Shown piece after piece: positions 8,103 to 45,610 of a stretch of DNA of 45,671 bases (position 1 is its first letter; each line of letters opens with the position of its first letter). The notes under the pieces are model-generated. The model made no database searches, had not been told where the DNA came from, and worked only from the letters and a program-made list of their open reading frames with translations. Source of the DNA: a virus; IMG/VR virus record IMGVR_UViG_3300045929_000065, positions 1-45,671 of that record, one strand, 5' to 3'. Made by a program: the position numbers and the translations under genes.

Positions 8103-8675
8103 TTACGTCCTCGTTTCCCAGACCGAGGTGGCCTGATTTGGATAAACGTTGAACATGGTGCCGACCCTGCGCATCACGCCGTGCTTGGCGATGGTTTCGA
8201 AGAAACGCTTGTTGCTCTCATCCGCATACTCGACCATCGGGATCTGTTTCCTGATCCGCTCGAAGAAATGGACCGAGGCCTCGATCTTGTTGCGCTTGCT
8301 CGCCCACGGCATCCACAGCATCGCGCCGATGATCCAGAACGTGCAGTGCTCCGGAAACGGCGTCGAGGGAAAGGCGAGCACGATGCCGACCGGCAGGTAG
8401 CCGCGCCTGGTGTCGGCGAACAGCGTCCAGGCGCCGCCGTATTTCTTCACCTCGTGAACGAATGCATACTCGAACTGCTGGGGATCCAGCTCGCCATTGT
8501 CGAACGGGCCGCGCAACTGTGCGAGCTCGCCCTTCTTGTAGGCGACGTAAGCGTACTTGATGTCCTCGTCCTCGATCGGCCGGAAATCGAGCCTGCGCCT
8601 GAGCGTCTTCGACAGCCGCCAGCTATTGCGACGAGGCGATGAAGCGGAGGCCGATCTCGTTGAGGGCGAATGCAT
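8103..8675 (-). CDS. GNAT-like phage protein next to tail genes
   Basis: The conserved part begins around LDFRPIEDEDIKYAYVAYKKG and continues through a region with the alternating beta/alpha character of phage acyltransferase-like (GNAT-fold) proteins, including LPVGIVLAFPSTPFPEH and FFERIRKQIPMVEYAD. The exact start is unclear: the only ATG gives 190 residues but overlaps the upstream gene by 53 bp in another frame and has no good ribosome site, so a non-ATG start just after 8623 is possible. Enzymatic activity is not demonstrated by visible catalytic residues. It is translated next to the internal virion proteins. Confidence 0.5.
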   Translation of the reverse strand: MHSPSTRSASASSPRRNSWRLSKTLRRRLDFRPIEDEDIKYAYVAYKKGELAQLRGPFDNGELDPQQFEYAFVHEVKKYGGAWTLFADTRRGYLPVGIVLAFPSTPFPEHCTFWIIGAMLWMPWASKRNKIEASVHFFERIRKQIPMVEYADESNKRFFETIAKHGVMRRVGTMFNVYPNQATSVWETRT

Positions 8676-10218
8676 TGGGACTGTTGACGTTGATTCTGAC
8701 CTGAAAGTCGGAGGCCTGGCCGGCGGCCTGGAAGCGCTGGCGCAGCAGCCGGTTGATCGCGCTTGCGCCCCAGTAGATGTTGCCGCCCCAGTAGTAATTG
8801 CCGCCGAAGTACCAGGCCGTGATGCCGGTGGTCGGCACCGTCATGCTCACGCCCTGGGTACTGAGCTCGTAACCGGCGTATTCGAACGTCATGTCGATGT
8901 TGAACGCGACGTTCTTGCGGTATTTGACGTAACCCTCGATGCGGTAGAACTCAGCATCGAGCGGGGCCACGAACAGCCGGGTGAGCCACTCGGTGGCGAT
9001 CGCGGTGGCGCCGCCGTCGCCCGCGCCGCGGCCTTCCAGGCGATAGATGTGGCCGCTGCTGTCGCCCATGAACACGTACTCGAGCCCATCGGCGGGATCG
9101 AGCATGGCCATCACGAAGGTCGGCAGGAAGGCGAGGGAATGATCGGTGCGCCAGCGCATCCAGGGCGACAGCTTCCCGCCGCGCATCGCGATGTTGTAGA
9201 CCCAGCACTCCGAGATGCCGGACGGGAACAGATAGGCGCGGTTGAGCCGCGAGTTGTAGACGATGCGCCAGCCGGTGTAGTCGGCGACCTGGTCGGCAAT
9301 ACCGGACGTCAGGTCATCGGCCTCGCTGTCGCCGAAGCGGTCGGTATCGCGCACGCTCTCGATCCGGCCCGCTCTGCCGTAGAAGATGTCGTTGCCGACG
9401 TAGGCCATGCTCTCGGCGCCCGAGGCCGACGAGCCGGCATAGAAATCGGTGAACGAGAAATCGCTGGCGTCGAAGCCGGTGAGATTGAACAGCTGGCCCT
9501 TCTCGGTCGAGATGATGGTGGAGCCGAAGGCCTCGACCAGTCCATTGATTGGCTTGATGTCGGGGGTGACCAGAAAGAACGGATCCTCGGGATCGCCGCC
9601 CGGACGCTGGTTGACGGTAATGACCTGATAGTTGGAGCGCTCGGCGCCGACCATCATTTGCGGAAAGAAGCCGCCGGCGTCGCGGGTGTTGGCGAACACC
9701 GCGCGCTCGTGGCTGATCGACAGGTACTTGGCGTAGAACGCGCCGAACGCGGCCGCGGCCTCGTTGGTGAAGGCGACATCGGCCCAGGTGGCGCCGTCCC
9801 ACTGCTTGACGGTCTCGGTCAGCTCCATGTCGGTAACCAGCAGCACGTCATCGAGCTGCCAGTTGTGCGAGCGCCAGTGGCCGCGCAGGCGGGCGGTGGC
9901 GTTGACGCTGCCGATCGAGGTGAAGGTGGTGGCGCCGTCCCACTCATAGACGGTATCGCCGGCCTGGAAGAAGGTCTTGATGATGCCGCCCGAGGTCAGC
10001 AGCGAGCCGCCGCCGCGGATTTCGGCGGCATTGGGTACGACGCCGACCAGATCGAACGGCGGCCGGCAGCGCAGCTCGCGGTTCTCGAGATCGAGCAGGA
10101 AGTTCTTGCCGCCCGCGGCCTCGCGCGGATCGATCTCGTCCTCGCTGGCGCGGGTGTGCAGCCCACCGCCGAAGCGGATCGAGACGTCAAGATCTTTGGG
10201 CCCGATCCTCTGCGGCAT
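8623..10218 (-). CDS. podovirus tail protein, beta-propeller-like (tail tube/nozzle candidate)
   Basis: 531 residues, no membrane segment, dominated by repeated beta blades with Gly-Asp turns (DTVYEWDGATTFTSIGSV, VKQWDGATWADVAF, YVFMGDSSGHIYRLEG). Large beta-propeller proteins directly after a tubular-A-like adaptor gene form the tail nozzle (T7 gp12 position) in short-tailed phages. It starts TGATG-coupled to the adaptor gene. The assignment is by order and fold-like composition. Confidence 0.6.
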   Translation of the reverse strand: MPQRIGPKDLDVSIRFGGGLHTRASEDEIDPREAAGGKNFLLDLENRELRCRPPFDLVGVVPNAAEIRGGGSLLTSGGIIKTFFQAGDTVYEWDGATTFTSIGSVNATARLRGHWRSHNWQLDDVLLVTDMELTETVKQWDGATWADVAFTNEAAAAFGAFYAKYLSISHERAVFANTRDAGGFFPQMMVGAERSNYQVITVNQRPGGDPEDPFFLVTPDIKPINGLVEAFGSTIISTEKGQLFNLTGFDASDFSFTDFYAGSSASGAESMAYVGNDIFYGRAGRIESVRDTDRFGDSEADDLTSGIADQVADYTGWRIVYNSRLNRAYLFPSGISECWVYNIAMRGGKLSPWMRWRTDHSLAFLPTFVMAMLDPADGLEYVFMGDSSGHIYRLEGRGAGDGGATAIATEWLTRLFVAPLDAEFYRIEGYVKYRKNVAFNIDMTFEYAGYELSTQGVSMTVPTTGITAWYFGGNYYWGGNIYWGASAINRLLRQRFQAAGQASDFQVRINVNSPNAFALNEIGLRFIASSQ

Positions 10219-11433: not shown

Positions 11434-12764
11434 CTAGTTCGTCAAGTTTGTGGCGCCGACGCGGATGCCAAAGATCCAGTTGGCGTTGAGCACGACCCCG
11501 GCATGGAATGCCTTCCAGGCGATGGTCGAGATTTCGTTGTAGGGATCGCCCGCGCCCGCGCTGCCGCGGTCGTGGAAGATCATCTCGAAGCTGCCGGTAT
11601 TCTCGCCGGCGCGATAGGCGCCGTCGGTATGACGCTCACCGAGCCCGACCGATCCGACTGCATCCTTGCCGTAGATGACGATGGTGTAGATGTCGGTGTC
11701 GGTTGGGGTGGTGCCGCGCACGTCGGTGCCGCCGGTAGCGCCGGCGTCGGCGTCGATCGAGGCATCCTCCGAGATGACGAAGCGGACACCGCGACCCGCC
11801 CGGCCGTAGTAGCCGAACTCGCCCTGCAGCAGCGCGACCTGGCCGGCGTATTTCTCCACCGACTGGAAGCCGGTGATGCCGGACACGTCGATTGCCACGT
11901 CGGGATGGCAGATCCCGATGTAGCTCGGCAGGATCGGCGTGGTGCCGATGTTCTGTGAGCCGGTGGCGATCGGATAGAACATCCGCGCGCTGTTGCGGGT
12001 GAGCTCGTTGATCACCCGGTCGAGCACGCCCCCCGTGATGATCGAGTTGACGGCCGCGGTATTGGCGGCGTTGGCTGCGAAGCGCTGGGTGGAGTTGTCC
12101 TCCGCAATGTCGCGCTGCAGCTGGTTGAGCGACCGCCCGGCGCTTTCGCCGAGCACCTCGACGATCTCGTTGGTGGTCTTGTTCGGGTTGTAGAGCTCGA
12201 CTTCCTCGTTGACGATGTAAACTTGATGTTCGCAGAAAGGACGCTATTCCGATCCACCGCTTCCTCAGAAGCTGCTGCATGTTTCCATGCAGAACAGACT
12301 ATATCTTCATCTCATCCGAGATGTTGGGCGCTTCCGGCCGCTTGGCCGTACTCCCTTGCGGGATAGTCGTTGAACCTTCCTCTTTCGAGGCTCGGCTGCT
12401 GATTGTCTTCGGCATTACCCGGTCAGAGTTTCCAGCAATTCACCCAATTTAAGGTCAGCTAATTCAACTGACCGTACTTCGCGACGGTTGCGAGTACATC
12501 GGTAAACGTAGGCGTGTCGCTGTCACGGCCCTGCATCCAGGTCGACGTTGCCGTCAACTCGGCCAGCGCCGTGGTGGTGGGCGTCTCCTGCTCGATGCGC
12601 CGCCATTTGACGGTGGAGGTGCCCTGCTGCTTGTTGAGCGTGCCCGGCATGGTGCCGAGGTAGTACGGACACATCTGCTGTGCCCGGCGCAGGAACGTCT
12701 GCTGAAAAACCGCATTTATTGGCTTTGTCAGCTCGACGTCGGTAGCGGTTACTGTCTGTGCCAT
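11434..12764 (-). CDS. major capsid protein, N4-gp56-like; split by a group I intron, join(11434..12221,12467..12764)
   Basis: Two exons: 12764-12467 (codons 1-99 plus one base) and 12221-11434. Joined, they give one 361-residue protein with the junction ...AKYGQ-F-YIVNEEVELYN. The N-terminal exon (FQQTFLRRAQQMCPYYLG) and the second (LGESAGRSLNQLQRDI) are the successive conserved blocks of the N4-gp56 family of HK97-fold capsid proteins. Without splicing the frame stops at a TAG in the intron after 101 residues. A weak AAGG ribosome site precedes the ATG. The scaffold gene lies just upstream. The boundaries are inferred from intron structure plus reading frame. Confidence 0.85.
12222..12466 (-). 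ncRNA. group I self-splicing intron (ORF-less, 245 nt) in the major capsid gene
   Basis: All core helices can be drawn (minus-strand positions). P1 pairs exon GGTCAGT (12473-12467) with GCTGACC (12459-12453), giving the U-G pair at the 5' site. P3 TTGGGTG/CGCCCAA (12447-12441/12330-12324). P4 TGCTG/CAGCA (12437-12433/12401-12397). P6 hairpin CCTC-GAAA-GAGG (12390-12379). P7 GACTA/TAGTC (12368-12364/12301-12297). P8 CATCTC/GAGATG (12323-12308). P9 CTGCATG-GAAA-CATGCAG (12292-12275). Two extra stems between P7 and P3 resemble P7.1/P7.2 of subgroup IA. The intron ends in G at 12222, and only this end restores the frame. No homing endonuclease is inside it. Confidence 0.88.
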
Positions 12765-19668: not shown

Positions 19669-19797
19669 CTAAGCCTTTCCCCGCTTCACGGCCGCACGCT
19701 TGCGACGGCGCGCGGGCGTCGTCTTGGGCTTCGGCCGGTAGCGCAGAACAACGTCCGCGATGGCGTCGAGAACCTTGGGCGGTTTCAGCTTTTTCAT
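19669..19797 (-). CDS. 42-aa basic ORF inside the IS
   Basis: Starts at ATGA overlapping the transposase stop (19794-19797), and ends one base before the start of the PP-loop gene. The product is highly basic (RRRKRAAVKRGKA at the C-terminus) with a short helical N-terminus MKKLKPPKVLDAIADVVLRY. The coupling suggests it is co-translated with both neighbours. No family was recognised. Confidence 0.55.
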   Translation of the reverse strand: MKKLKPPKVLDAIADVVLRYRPKPKTTPARRRKRAAVKRGKA

Positions 19798-20717
19798 GCG
19801 ATCAGCGCCTTGTAGGTCAGGCGCTTGCCCGCAACGCCGTCAATGAAGCTGCTGAGCCGTTCCAGCGTGTGCCGGGCCACGTTGCCGTCATTCAGGCGGA
19901 ATGCGAACTCGTCAACGTAGCGGCCGATATGCTTCGGACTGGCGTGGTGGTAGACGCCGATCAGGCCGCGTTTGAGAACTGCGAACACGGACTCGATGCC
20001 ATTCGTGGTGACGCCATCGCGGACGTATTCGCCCTCGCTGTGGTTCACGGTCGCGTGGTCGAAAAACAGCCCGCCCATGTCGCGATAGGCGCCAGCCTCA
20101 TCGGTGTGCAGCGTCGAGCCAACTTCGACGTTCTGCACGATAACGTCCTGAATGGTCTGAGCGTCCGTGCTGGCGAGCTTGACCGCCTTGGTGCGCCCGC
20201 CCTTGCCGCGCTCGCGCATGCCCAGCACGGCCGTCTTGCCGACCGTGCCGCGCCCGGCCTTCAGCTTTTTGTGTTCATGCTTGTTGGCCTCGATCCCGCC
20301 AACGTAGGTTTCATCAATCTCGACCAGCCCCTGCAACATCGTCATGTCGCCGCCGCACGCTTCCCGCAGCCGGTGCAGGACGAACCACGCGGACTTTTGC
20401 GTGATGCCGATCTCTTTCGAGAGTTGCAGGCTGGAGATGCCCTTGCGGGCCGTCACGAGCAGGTACATCGCGTAAACCCACTTGTGGAGGGGAACGTGGC
20501 TGCGCTCGAAAATCGTGCCGGTGCGCACCGTGAAGTCTTCCTTGCACTGGTTGCAGCGATAGAAGCCGCCTTTGCGGGTCGTGATCCGCTCGCCCAATCC
20601 GCAGACAGGGCAAGTCGGGCCGTTCGGCCAAAGCCGCCCCTCAAGGTACGTCCGGGCCGTCTCTTGGTCCGGGATCATCGCGAACAGTTCAAACGTCGAA
20701 ATAGTGGACTTGGACAT
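19794..20717 (-). CDS. IS1595-family transposase (DDE)
   Basis: 307 residues. N-terminal zinc ribbon CPVCG...CNQC (36-58), followed by the helix-turn-helix-like region KGISSLQLSKEIGITQKSA. The catalytic domain shows VEIDETYVGG (Asp135), LHTDEAGAY (Asp206) and the NGIE motif (Glu242), i.e. the ISXO2-like/IS1595 DDE fold. The length is normal and the frame is intact, so the element may still be active. The gene starts 70 bases from the right end of the IS. Confidence 0.93.
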   Translation of the reverse strand: MSKSTISTFELFAMIPDQETARTYLEGRLWPNGPTCPVCGLGERITTRKGGFYRCNQCKEDFTVRTGTIFERSHVPLHKWVYAMYLLVTARKGISSLQLSKEIGITQKSAWFVLHRLREACGGDMTMLQGLVEIDETYVGGIEANKHEHKKLKAGRGTVGKTAVLGMRERGKGGRTKAVKLASTDAQTIQDVIVQNVEVGSTLHTDEAGAYRDMGGLFFDHATVNHSEGEYVRDGVTTNGIESVFAVLKRGLIGVYHHASPKHIGRYVDEFAFRLNDGNVARHTLERLSSFIDGVAGKRLTYKALIA

Positions 20718-20763
20718 GGCAGACTTACCCCGATTTCACCGGCACAACATAGCAAAATCCGGC

Positions 20764-20787
20764 AAGGGAGTAAAGTATATAATTCCC
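20764..20787 (-). repeat. right terminal inverted repeat of the IS
   Basis: Read on the minus strand it begins GGGAATTATATAC and ends ACTCCCTT, matching the left end at 21 of 24 positions. Confidence 0.9.
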
Positions 20788-20795
20788 TTAATTTT
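20788..20795. repeat. 8-bp target-site duplication, right copy
   Basis: TTAATTTT, identical to 18880-18887 and directly next to the right end of the IS. Confidence 0.95.
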
Positions 20796-21086
20796 GTTGT
20801 GACGCCCTGTATGGCCGCGCCTCACATTTTCCTGCGGCGTGACGGCCTCAAGATGATCTGGATTGATGCAATGCCTTACGCGACACAAATGATCCAGCTC
20901 AAGACCTTCAGGGATCGAGCCGTTAGCGAACTGCCAAGCCAACCTATGCGCACTAACAGTGCGCCCTTTATATTTGAGACTTCCATATCCACCGGATACT
21001 CTCGCACCCTGCCACAAGCGACAGGCGCCCAACTCAATTGTGCGAGAAAATAATTCAGTGAGTGTGTCCATATCTGAATAATCCAT
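20788..21086 (-). pseudogene. HNH homing-type endonuclease, 5' fragment truncated by the IS
   Basis: Encodes about 99 native residues: CRLWQGARVSGGYGSLKYKG, then the HNH core LELDHLCRVRHCINPDHLE and QENVRRGHTGRHNK, after which the frame runs into IS DNA and stops at 20736. Joined to 18759-18879 it makes a 139-residue protein with the C-terminal zinc module. The start is 21086 or, less probably, the ATG at 21071. It overlaps the end of the glycosyltransferase gene. Such free-standing HNH genes commonly lie beside terminase genes. Confidence 0.85.
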
Positions 21087-24447: not shown

Positions 24448-24909
24448 ATGAAAACAGAAGATCAGAAACGAGCAGCCCGCGAAGCAATGCAGCGCTGGCG
24501 CATGCGCAATCCGGACAAGGTCCGCGCTGCAAACAAAAAACATTGGGAAGAAAACAAGGAATATCATTTATCCCGAAACAAAAAGTGGGTGAGCGCAAAT
24601 GGCGAACACCTTCGAAGATACAGGCGCGATCACTATTACAAAACGCGCGATCAGCAACTGATATGGAAACGAATCGGGGCTCTACGCAAAAAATATGGCT
24701 TGGAATTAAGCGACGTTCTCGCCATGTGGAACAAACAAAATGGAAGATGCCGCATCTGCGAATGCAACATCCAACAAGATGGGCCGCGAACCCACATCGA
24801 CCACTGTCACAATACTGGACGCATTCGCGGACTTCTATGTTCAGGATGCAATAGGATGCTTGGTCGTGTCGAACGCCTTCTGCCACGCATTCTTGAGTAT
24901 CTAGCGTGA
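24448..24909 (+). CDS. recombination endonuclease VII-like (HNH) nuclease, opposite strand insert
   Basis: 153 residues. The N-terminal half is basic and helical (RNPDKVRAANKKHWEENKEY). The C-terminal half has the endonuclease VII/HNH zinc fold: CRICECN, THIDHCHNTGRIRG, LLCSGCNRMLG. It is the only plus-strand gene within the ~31-kb minus-strand late operon and is visibly more A+T-rich than its surroundings, both signs of a selfish free-standing nuclease. Either DNA-junction processing or homing is possible; orientation and flanking repeat favour homing. Confidence 0.8.
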   Translation: MKTEDQKRAAREAMQRWRMRNPDKVRAANKKHWEENKEYHLSRNKKWVSANGEHLRRYRRDHYYKTRDQQLIWKRIGALRKKYGLELSDVLAMWNKQNGRCRICECNIQQDGPRTHIDHCHNTGRIRGLLCSGCNRMLGRVERLLPRILEYLA

Positions 24910-30938: not shown

Positions 30939-31394
30939 TCAGGGCCGCCGGTCTATCCGCGCGTCGCGTTTCCCGGCATTGCACTCATGACAAGCCGTCA
31001 CAAGGTTCTCTAAATCATCGGTCCCGCCCAATGCCCGCGCAATTACATGGTCAGTCTCAAGCACAACATCCTGTTGCGCCCCACGCCCGCAATACCGGCA
31101 CTTAAATCCATCGCGTTCCAAAACCGCAAACCGCCGCTGTGCCCAACTAATCAAAAGCCGCCCAGAAATGTGCCCCAGTTCCCGATCCCGCCGCTCACGC
31201 CTGCCAGCCCGCCACGTGTTCACCCGACAGGCATCCGAACAAAACCGCTTGTCCAGTGACCCCTTGAACTCCCTTCCACACCAGAAACATCGGTGAACAT
31301 AAAGCAACGTCCTCGGCGAATAACTTACCCCATCCTGATATGGCCGGTAACGCGGCCGGTCCGCCGAAACTAAAGGTCCATCACCAGTCAACAT
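30939..31394 (-). CDS. HNH endonuclease
   Basis: 151 residues. N-terminal zinc motif CFWCGREFKG...CSDACR, then HNH core: CRYCGRG, LETDHVIARALGGTDDLENL and CHECNAGK. GAGGTAAC precedes the ATG. It ends in a TGA abutting the in-frame TTG of the FkbM gene. It lies between the small terminase and the tail genes, a place where HNH proteins may help terminase cleavage in some phages, but its role here may equally be homing. Confidence 0.85.
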   Translation of the reverse strand: MLTGDGPLVSADRPRYRPYQDGVSYSPRTLLYVHRCFWCGREFKGSLDKRFCSDACRVNTWRAGRRERRDRELGHISGRLLISWAQRRFAVLERDGFKCRYCGRGAQQDVVLETDHVIARALGGTDDLENLVTACHECNAGKRDARIDRRP

Positions 31395-43975: not shown

Positions 43976-44331
43976 CCACGCCCTGCCCCGAGACGCTCGA
44001 GCGCGAGGACGGCAAATTATTCCTCACCGATGCGGAACTGATCCGCCGGCTCGGCGTTCCTGAACGTTTGGGTTACAGCATCCTGCGCATGATGGACGCC
44101 GATCCCAAGTCCGGGTTTCCGAAGAAAGAGCGCCTGTGGGGAGACCGGCGCTACTGGCCAGCGGTGGCGGCCTACCTCGATGCCACCCTGGTTCCACGAT
44201 ACATTCCAACTGGCGCGGCTAGGCTCGCTACCGAAAACCGGGATCTCCGTTCCCGGCTGCCGCGTCAGACCACCCTAACGGAGCTCGCTCGACGGAGGAG
44301 CAGACATGACCTACCAACACCCGAAAATTGA
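43972..44331 (+). CDS. putative excisionase / winged-helix DNA-binding protein
   Basis: 119 residues. FLTDAELIRRLGVPERLGYS and FPKKERLWGDRRYWPAVAAY, LDATL resemble MerR/AlpA-type winged-helix proteins used as excisionases. It ends inside the integrase gene (26-bp overlap), the classic xis-int arrangement. The C-terminal ~30 residues are basic and variable. Confidence 0.65.
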   Translation: MTTPCPETLEREDGKLFLTDAELIRRLGVPERLGYSILRMMDADPKSGFPKKERLWGDRRYWPAVAAYLDATLVPRYIPTGAARLATENRDLRSRLPRQTTLTELARRRSRHDLPTPEN

Positions 44332-45610
44332 CAATGCGCCCGGCCTGCGGTGGAGGCCCCGCCAGAACGGCTGGGAAGCCCGCTGGTACGCGCGCGATGA
44401 CATGGTCAAGAAGGGCTTCCTGCCCAAGACCGCGCGCCTGTGGGCCGGTATTTCGCCAACGGCGGCCGAGCGGCAGTGGATATCCGAGCGCTGCAATCGC
44501 CTGCAGGACGAGCAGGCGATGTGGGCGCGCGGAGGCCTGCCGCAGGTTCGGACCTGGGATGGCACGCTGGCCGTGCTGATCGACCGCTATCAGACTGACG
44601 AGAACTCCGACTACCGCGATCTGCGGTATCACACGCAATTGGGCTACGACAGAAACTTCCGCCGCCTCGTCGCCGACCACGGCGAAGAGTTGCTGGCGGA
44701 TATCGATGCGCCGAGCCTGAAGCGGTTTCATCGCGACTGGAAAGCGGCCACCAGCGTGTCGACGGCACACGCTCTGATCGCGCATCTGCGCATCGTGGTT
44801 CGGTTCGGCGCCGCATTCGTGCAGGAAGCGCACGCCGATTGCGTGCGGCTGCGCGACGTGCTCAGCAACATGAAGTTCGAGGTCGCGAAGCCGCGGCGGA
44901 CGGTACTGACCGCTGAGCAGGCCGAGGCGATCCGGGCGAAGGCGCACGAGCTCGGCAAGCCGTCGATCGCGCTCGCCCAGGCGATCCTGTTCGATGGCGT
45001 GTTGCGGCAGAAGGATGTGGTGGGGGAGTGGGTGCCGCTGCGCGAGCCGGGGCTGTCCGATGTGACCAACGGCGCCAGCAAATGGCTGCGCGGCATTCGG
45101 TGGGAGGAACTCAGTGATCAGCTGGTACTGACGCACACCACCTCGAAAAAGCAGAAGGAAGTGGAAATCGATTTCCGGTTCGCGCCGATGATCATGCAGG
45201 AGCTCGACTGGCTATGGTCGCAGGGGTTGCCGGGGTTGCCCGCCAAGGGACCGATCGTCATCTGTGAGACCACGGGCCAGCCCTGGTACGCCAGCGAGTT
45301 CCGGCGCTGGTGGCGCAAGATCGCGGATGCGGCCGGGGTGCCGAAGGAGGTCTGGTCGATGGACAGCCGGGCCGGCGCCATCACCGAGGCGACCAAGGCG
45401 GGCGCGCCGGTCGAGATGATCAAGCATGCCGCAGCCCACTCCAATATCAGCACCACCGAGCGCTATGCGCGCGCGGGTGCGGAGAAGGCGGCGGTGGTCA
45501 TGCAGATGCGCGCCGAATACCGGGCGCGGGCACAGGAGAACAAACCGAAACTTTTGGGGACCGACTTCGGGAAGAGCCTGGACCTGGATCCTGGCGGATC
45601 AAGGACTTAG
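44306..45610 (+). CDS. int: tyrosine-type site-specific integrase
   Basis: 434 residues. N-terminal arm/core-binding domains (to about 200; LRWRPRQNGWEARW at the start), then the catalytic domain: LRQKDV (Arg234), TSKKQKE (Lys281 or nearby), MDSRAGAIT (Arg355), AHSNISTTERYAR (His378, Tyr387). A lysogenic lifestyle follows. GGAG (AGGAGCAGACATG) precedes the ATG. The 3' end is cut across the contig ends and repeated at 1-66. attP probably lies just after the stop. Confidence 0.92.
   Translation: MTYQHPKIDNAPGLRWRPRQNGWEARWYARDDMVKKGFLPKTARLWAGISPTAAERQWISERCNRLQDEQAMWARGGLPQVRTWDGTLAVLIDRYQTDENSDYRDLRYHTQLGYDRNFRRLVADHGEELLADIDAPSLKRFHRDWKAATSVSTAHALIAHLRIVVRFGAAFVQEAHADCVRLRDVLSNMKFEVAKPRRTVLTAEQAEAIRAKAHELGKPSIALAQAILFDGVLRQKDVVGEWVPLREPGLSDVTNGASKWLRGIRWEELSDQLVLTHTTSKKQKEVEIDFRFAPMIMQELDWLWSQGLPGLPAKGPIVICETTGQPWYASEFRRWWRKIADAAGVPKEVWSMDSRAGAITEATKAGAPVEMIKHAAAHSNISTTERYARAGAEKAAVVMQMRAEYRARAQENKPKLLGTDFGKSLDLDPGGSRT

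What the first reader, a model, noticed from the sequence alone, without database searches (positions are those of the whole stretch)
11434..12764. ORF-less group I intron inside the major capsid gene of a podovirus
The capsid frame is broken by 245 nt that fold into P1, P3, P4, P6, P7, P7.1/7.2-like, P8 and P9 of a group I intron. Using the structurally predicted ends, the two exons join in frame (KYGQ-F-YIVN) into a full-length N4-gp56-type capsid protein; unspliced RNA gives a 101-residue stub. Capsid output, and thus virion yield, would depend on splicing.
Basis: partly seen in the sequence, partly recalled or inferred. Interest (0 to 1): 0.78.

Follow-up and report, generated by a model that had tools for sequence, protein, structure and literature searches.

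The report
Self-splicing intron in phage capsid gene
The gene for this uncultured phage's main shell protein is cut in two by a small RNA that very probably removes itself from the message; the kind is already known, but a survey of related contigs suggests that such bare introns sit in phage shell genes more often than has been noticed.

Summary
Window 12222-12466 (-), 245 nt, is a group I intron (Rfam RF00028, 90.2 bits, E=6.7e-22; P1-P9 with P7.1/P7.2, so subgroup IA). It lies in a major capsid gene. Joining 12467 to 12221 gives a 361-aa protein scoring 149 bits on NCBIfam TIGR04387 (N4-gp56 capsid; cut-off 60). The closest relative in another phage, L003 (61-62% identical), has no intron and reads KYGQFYIVNEEVE straight across the junction. 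The intron lies one residue after the family's invariant Tyr-Gly and carries no endonuclease gene. An alignment of 51 such introns shows compensatory changes in most helices. Splicing was not observed.

The kind is known: phage capsid introns were reported before (LittleE with RT-PCR; crAss-like phages; Tuc2009). Beyond the finding: I found two more insertion sites in N4-gp56 capsid genes, and of the 50 deduplicated contigs with the most similar introns, 27 carry a capsid-family match, from at least four families, directly at the intron. That enrichment is partly confounded by contig selection (0 of 32 compact introns on contigs of 30 kb or more). 'Podovirus' and 'virion yield depends on splicing' remain inference. 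New member of a known kind.

The parts
12467..12764 (-). capsid gene, exon 1 (ATG at 12764; codons 1-99 and the first base of codon 100)
   Evidence: aligns with residues 1-99 of intron-less L003
12222..12466 (-). group I intron, 245 nt, subgroup IA, no ORF of its own
   Evidence: RF00028 90.2 bits; empty site in L003-L005; identical copy in L002
11434..12221 (-). capsid gene, exon 2 with stop codon
   Evidence: TIGR04387 126.7 bits for this part alone, phrog_1357
12467..12473 (-). P1, 5' exon strand GGTCAGT; its last U pairs with G12459 (U.G at the 5' splice site)
   Evidence: 7-bp helix with 12453-12459; also in the MFE fold
12453..12459 (-). P1, internal guide sequence GCTGACC
12441..12447 (-). 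P3 5' strand, pairs with 12324-12330
   Evidence: 96% of cells paired in 51 introns (shuffled 66%), four pair types at several positions
12433..12438 (-). P4 5' strand, pairs with 12396-12401
   Evidence: invariant in 51 introns, so no covariation evidence
12364..12368 (-). P7 5' strand GACTA (guanosine-binding site region), pairs with 12297-12301
   Evidence: invariant in 51 introns
12335..12363 (-). P7.1 and P7.2 hairpins, the mark of subgroup IA
   Evidence: compensatory changes
12308..12323 (-). P8 hairpin
12275..12292 (-). P9 hairpin with GAAA loop
12459..12461 (-). in-frame stop TAG 5 bases into the intron, in P1: ends translation of unspliced RNA at 101 aa

Best explanation
A compact subgroup-IA group I intron interrupts the N4-gp56-type major capsid gene of an uncultivated tailed phage. 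The RNA folds so that the end of exon 1 (GGUCAGU) pairs with the internal guide sequence, a free guanosine attacks after that U, the freed exon attacks after the last intron base (G12222), and the exons join to an mRNA for a 361-residue capsid protein. Unspliced RNA gives a 101-residue stub. The stop codon 5 bases into the intron would keep ribosomes out of the ribozyme core. The intron arrived by horizontal transfer at a conserved codon and has no endonuclease of its own, so it now spreads passively, or with the help of a nuclease encoded elsewhere. Shown: sequence, structure, empty site, reading frame. Inferred: catalysis, efficiency, any regulatory role, mode of arrival.
For: RF00028 at E=6.7e-22 over the full model. 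Joined protein 149.2 bits on TIGR04387 over residues 16-354 (cut-off 60), against 126.7 for exon 2 alone and nothing for exon 1 alone. Intron-less relatives L003 (61-62%), L004 and L005 (47-48%) run through the site; L003 has the identical 13-residue junction peptide and the same gene order. Covariation in P3, P7.1, P7.2, P8 and P9 over 51 introns. A solved N4-like capsid matches the family profile at 1.5e-24. GC of the intron is 0.51, of the exons 0.64, which fits foreign origin. Its best intron matches lie in other capsid families (L037, 81.5% over 189 nt, phrog_1328 gene), not in the other N4-gp56 capsid introns.
Against: No transcript or protein data. Only one phage population carries it (L002 is the same phage, 0 mismatches over 5,622 bases and one 48-nt gap), so preservation of the intron over time could not be tested. 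P4 and P7 are invariant in the aligned introns, so they give no covariation support. P6 in my register paired in only 49% of cells, probably an alignment or register fault. A P10 helix is not evident.
Confidence: 0.95

Rival explanations
1. The intron is real but no longer splices (a decayed copy); the capsid gene is dead in this genome, or the virion uses fragments.
For: No RNA data. Non-splicing phage introns exist: in CB7 one of the HNH introns was not spliced under the conditions tested (PMC7344957).
Against: All core helices are intact, P7 and P4 match the consensus of 51 relatives, the score is as high as that of relatives (77-100 bits for most), both exons are open and conserved, and no other capsid gene was identified in the window (not every ORF was scanned).
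Confidence: 0.04
2. A programmed frameshift, assembly error or intein, not an intron.
For: The reading frame is broken and shifts by two bases (245 = 3x81+2), as a sequencing error could also do.
Against: A full group I RNA model matches exactly the inserted stretch; the same sequence occurs in an independently assembled contig (L002); the insert has stops in all three forward frames, which excludes an intein.
Confidence: 0.01
3. The intron is kept because it regulates: splicing couples capsid synthesis to late conditions (GTP, Mg2+, translation), and capsid genes are a favoured home for that reason.
For: 27 of 50 contigs with the most similar introns have a capsid-family match directly at the intron, and a second, differently chosen set again gives many capsid genes and few terminases.
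Against: No expression data. Enrichment falls with contig length: 29/67, 7/24 and 0/32 compact introns for contigs <15, 15-30 and >=30 kb, so selection of short viral contigs by head genes, or preference for strongly transcribed conserved genes, explains much of it without any regulatory role.
Confidence: 0.1

Closest known systems
Capsid intron of mycobacteriophage LittleE (Pope et al. 2013, PMC3706429)
   Same: Insertion in a major capsid gene of a temperate tailed phage; U before and G at the end of the intron; joined exons match intron-less relatives; splicing shown there by RT-PCR and N-terminal sequencing.
   Different: LittleE's intron is about 819 bp with a LAGLIDADG-like ORF on the other strand and its type was called 'most likely group I'; this one is 245 nt, has no ORF, matches RF00028 fully and lies in another capsid family. 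Splicing not shown here.
Group I introns in MCP genes of Delta and Zeta crAss-like phages (Yutin et al. 2021, PMC7886860)
   Same: Group I introns in the major capsid gene, inferred from metagenomic sequence.
   Different: Those were found by intron-encoded endonuclease domains, several per gene, in large gut phages; this one is a single bare intron in a 45.7-kb record with an integrase.
ORF-less phage introns with a free-standing nuclease ('collaborative homing', PMC3984707; F-CphI/psbA, PMC6083498)
   Same: No nuclease inside the intron, insertion at a conserved coding site.
   Different: The window has HNH and Endo VII-type ORFs, but the nearest is about 8 kb from the capsid gene; none could be linked to the site.
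T4-type and other phage IA introns (td, nrdB, terL, polymerase; about 750 phage records with similar DNA)
   Same: Same conserved core and IA architecture.
   Different: Those described usually sit in DNA-metabolism, terminase or lysis genes and often carry a nuclease gene.

Membership tests
Group I catalytic intron (RF00028) | Conserved core P3-P4-P6-P7-P8 at or above the curated score | tested here: met
   90.2 bits, cut-off 50, full length 1-253
Group I catalytic intron (RF00028) | U at the end of the 5' exon paired with G of the guide sequence; intron ends in G | tested here: met
   U12467.G12459 in a 7-bp P1 (176 of 5000 shuffles reach 7 bp); last base G12222
Group I catalytic intron (RF00028) | Helices supported by compensatory changes | tested here: met
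   P3, P7.1, P7.2, P8, P9 in 51 introns; P4 and P7 invariant, P6 poorly aligned
Group I catalytic intron (RF00028) | Guanosine-initiated self-splicing | not testable with these tools
   needs RNA
Subgroup IA | P7.1/P7.2 between P7 and P3 | tested here: met
   12335-12363, in the MFE fold and covarying; IA1/IA2 not separated
Mobile (homing) group I intron | Endonuclease ORF inside the intron | tested here: not met
   no forward open frame above 46 codons; a 76-codon reverse frame has no evidence of being a gene
N4-gp56 major capsid protein (TIGR04387) | Score above curated cut-off over the full length | tested here: met
   joined protein 149.2 bits, cut-off 60, residues 16-354
Podovirus | Short tail, podovirus tail genes | tested here: inconclusive
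   weak SU10-type portal, no decisive tail gene

The most novel reading that the evidence does not exclude
Small group I introns without endonuclease genes repeatedly and independently colonise major capsid genes of unrelated phage families at conserved codons (at least three sites in N4-gp56 capsids, several in phrog_1328 capsids, up to three introns in one gene), making the capsid gene a main home of bare introns in uncultivated phages and possibly a splicing-controlled late gene.
Probability: 0.35. Interest if true: 0.62.

Novelty: new member of a known kind. Interest (0 to 1): 0.42.

Why it matters
If it splices as predicted, every virion of this phage depends on a ribozyme, since an icosahedral head needs hundreds of copies of this protein. 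Annotation pipelines read such genes as two fragments, so capsid genes are missed or misjudged. The wider survey, if it holds in complete genomes, would name phage capsid genes as a main habitat of bare group I introns and offer many natural sites to ask how introns without endonucleases spread.

Tried and rejected
Host search: capsid and terminase against genome contigs gave no relative, so the host is unknown. Pfam on the separate exons gave nothing and the joined protein stayed below cut-off for Phage_capsid_4; TIGR04387 and phrog_1357 resolved the family. Isolate phages with similar introns that I opened have them in ribonucleotide reductase, at terminase and in thymidylate synthase, not in capsid genes. 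A fold of the intron-less L003 capsid was of low confidence (mean pLDDT 58.5); it places the junction between strands 91-97 and 100-106 before the long helix 116-142, but that region is below pLDDT 50, so I do not build on it. A specific subtype preference for capsid genes was considered and rejected: the control set with a different core sequence shows much the same. One capsid-family hit (L099) lay 601 nt from its intron and was not counted.

Full report
Observation. The window is a virus record of 45,671 bases (IMG/VR). On its - strand a capsid-size ORF ends after 101 codons at 12459, and the rest of the gene is open from 12221 to 11434. Rfam's group I model matches 12514-12275 with 90.2 bits, E=6.7e-22, over all 253 positions; it is the only such match in the record. 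The unspliced RNA folds better than all 200 shuffles (z -3.63) and shows nearly all group I helices without constraint; P7 comes from the Rfam alignment. The finding is confirmed at the stated coordinates.

Junction. Cutting after U12467 and after G12222 joins the frames to 361 residues. The joined protein scores 149.2 bits on TIGR04387, the N4-gp56 capsid family (cut-off 60), over residues 16-354; exon 2 alone scores 126.7 and exon 1 alone nothing. The closest relative in another phage, L003 (61-62% identical), has one uninterrupted gene with the identical peptide KYGQFYIVNEEVE across the site, and the same order portal-size, scaffold-size, capsid, two further ORFs. L004 and L005 (47-48%) and the more distant relatives are uninterrupted there too. 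None of the loci L003-L020 has an RF00028 match; L002 does, but it is the same phage (0 mismatches, one 48-nt gap elsewhere). The intron sits one codon after Tyr97-Gly98, two of 24 invariant columns among 13 capsids; introns in conserved positions are the rule (PMC2814812, known to me from its abstract).

Structure. Over 51 introns of the same core type, the window's included (dissimilar by about 8% or more), pairs are kept far above shuffled partners in P3 (0.96 against 0.66), P5 (0.93/0.75), P6a (0.89/0.71), P8 (0.85/0.66), P9 (0.80/0.54), P7.1 (0.69/0.45) and P7.2 (0.67/0.44), with several pair types per position; P4 and P7 do not vary, and P6 was badly registered (0.49/0.53). P7.1/P7.2 mark subgroup IA. 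The introns were chosen by an exact core pattern, which fixes P4, P6a and P7 in part. No endonuclease ORF lies inside. Intron GC is 0.51, exons 0.64.

Mechanism. From the established chemistry of group I introns: guanosine attack after U12467, exon attack after G12222, ligation. The stop codon 5 bases into the intron should halt ribosomes in P1, before the core; this is inference. The other two N4-gp56 introns also have an early in-frame stop.

Other capsid introns. Three of these contigs have an intron in an N4-gp56 capsid gene: L044 and L105 (93% identical to each other over 3.4 kb, so one case) at Ala-Glu-Gly|Val-Thr-Pro, and L052 at Arg-Thr-Ala-Ala|Tyr, all over the Rfam cut-off. My manual joins there keep the frame and fit relatives. 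The window's intron is far more like L037's (173 bits), which lies in a phrog_1328 capsid gene, than like those (66-70 bits), so the N4-gp56 introns are probably separate arrivals.

Of the 50 deduplicated contigs with the most similar introns, all have RF00028 over the cut-off, and 27 have a capsid-family match abutting (within 65 nt of) the intron: 16 phrog_1328, 7 phrog_267/3437, 2 phrog_10, 2 phrog_1357. In phrog_1328 genes the breaks fall near model positions 33, 68, 116-122, 237 and beyond 287, and L067 has three introns in the gene region. A control set with another core sequence, 76 flanking exons, again gives many capsid families, 9 psbA and 2 terminase matches; in the first set of 64 exons terminase also had 2. 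PHROG names are annotations, and the tallies overlap between families.

Caveat. With local capsid seeds the share of compact introns next to a capsid exon is 29/67 on contigs below 15 kb, 7/24 at 15-30 kb and 0/32 at 30 kb or more. Short contigs enter a virus collection largely because they hold hallmark genes, and long ones come from larger phages. The low terminase count argues against a pure hallmark effect, but the hotspot is a lead, not a result.

Known work. Capsid introns are known: LittleE (PMC3706429), Tuc2009 (cited there), crAss-like MCP genes (PMC7886860). Over half of viral group I introns in a recent database are IA2 (PMC11835236). I found no open-access paper that reports capsid genes as a favoured site of bare introns, but subscription papers and bioRxiv were not searched. 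Verdict: ordinary in kind, well supported, with a wider pattern worth a proper survey.

Noticed in passing
L044:696-907 (-), L105:2750-2961 (+), L052:1750-1986 (-): Compact group I introns in N4-gp56 capsid genes at two sites other than the window's (AEG|VTP and RTAA|Y).
   Followed up: yes
L037, L046, L054, L057, L065, L067, L069, L083, L093, L095, L115, L116, L122, L123, L128 and others: Similar bare group I introns in major head protein genes of phrog_1328, 267, 3437 and 10; some genes carry two or three introns.
   Followed up: partly
control set A3: Nine of 76 compact introns of another core type flank photosystem II D1 (psbA) exons.
   Followed up: no
window 44212-44281 (+): int-alpA RNA (RF02996, 48.2 bits, E=4.7e-7) directly upstream of an integrase gene (44306-45610), so the phage is probably temperate.
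   Followed up: no
window 20736-21086 (-), 24448-24909 (+), 30939-31394 (-): Free-standing nuclease ORFs: HNH_3, Endonuclease VII, and an HNH whose best NCBIfam match is IscB's HNH region (below cut-off). None is next to the capsid gene; partner role for the intron untested.
   Followed up: partly
window 19794-20717 (-): ORF that looks to me like an IS1595-type transposase (from memory, not searched).
   Followed up: no
window 9926-9973, absent from L002: 48-nt in-frame-size deletion within ORF 8623-10218 in the otherwise identical contig of IMGVR_UViG_3300045940_000088.
   Followed up: no
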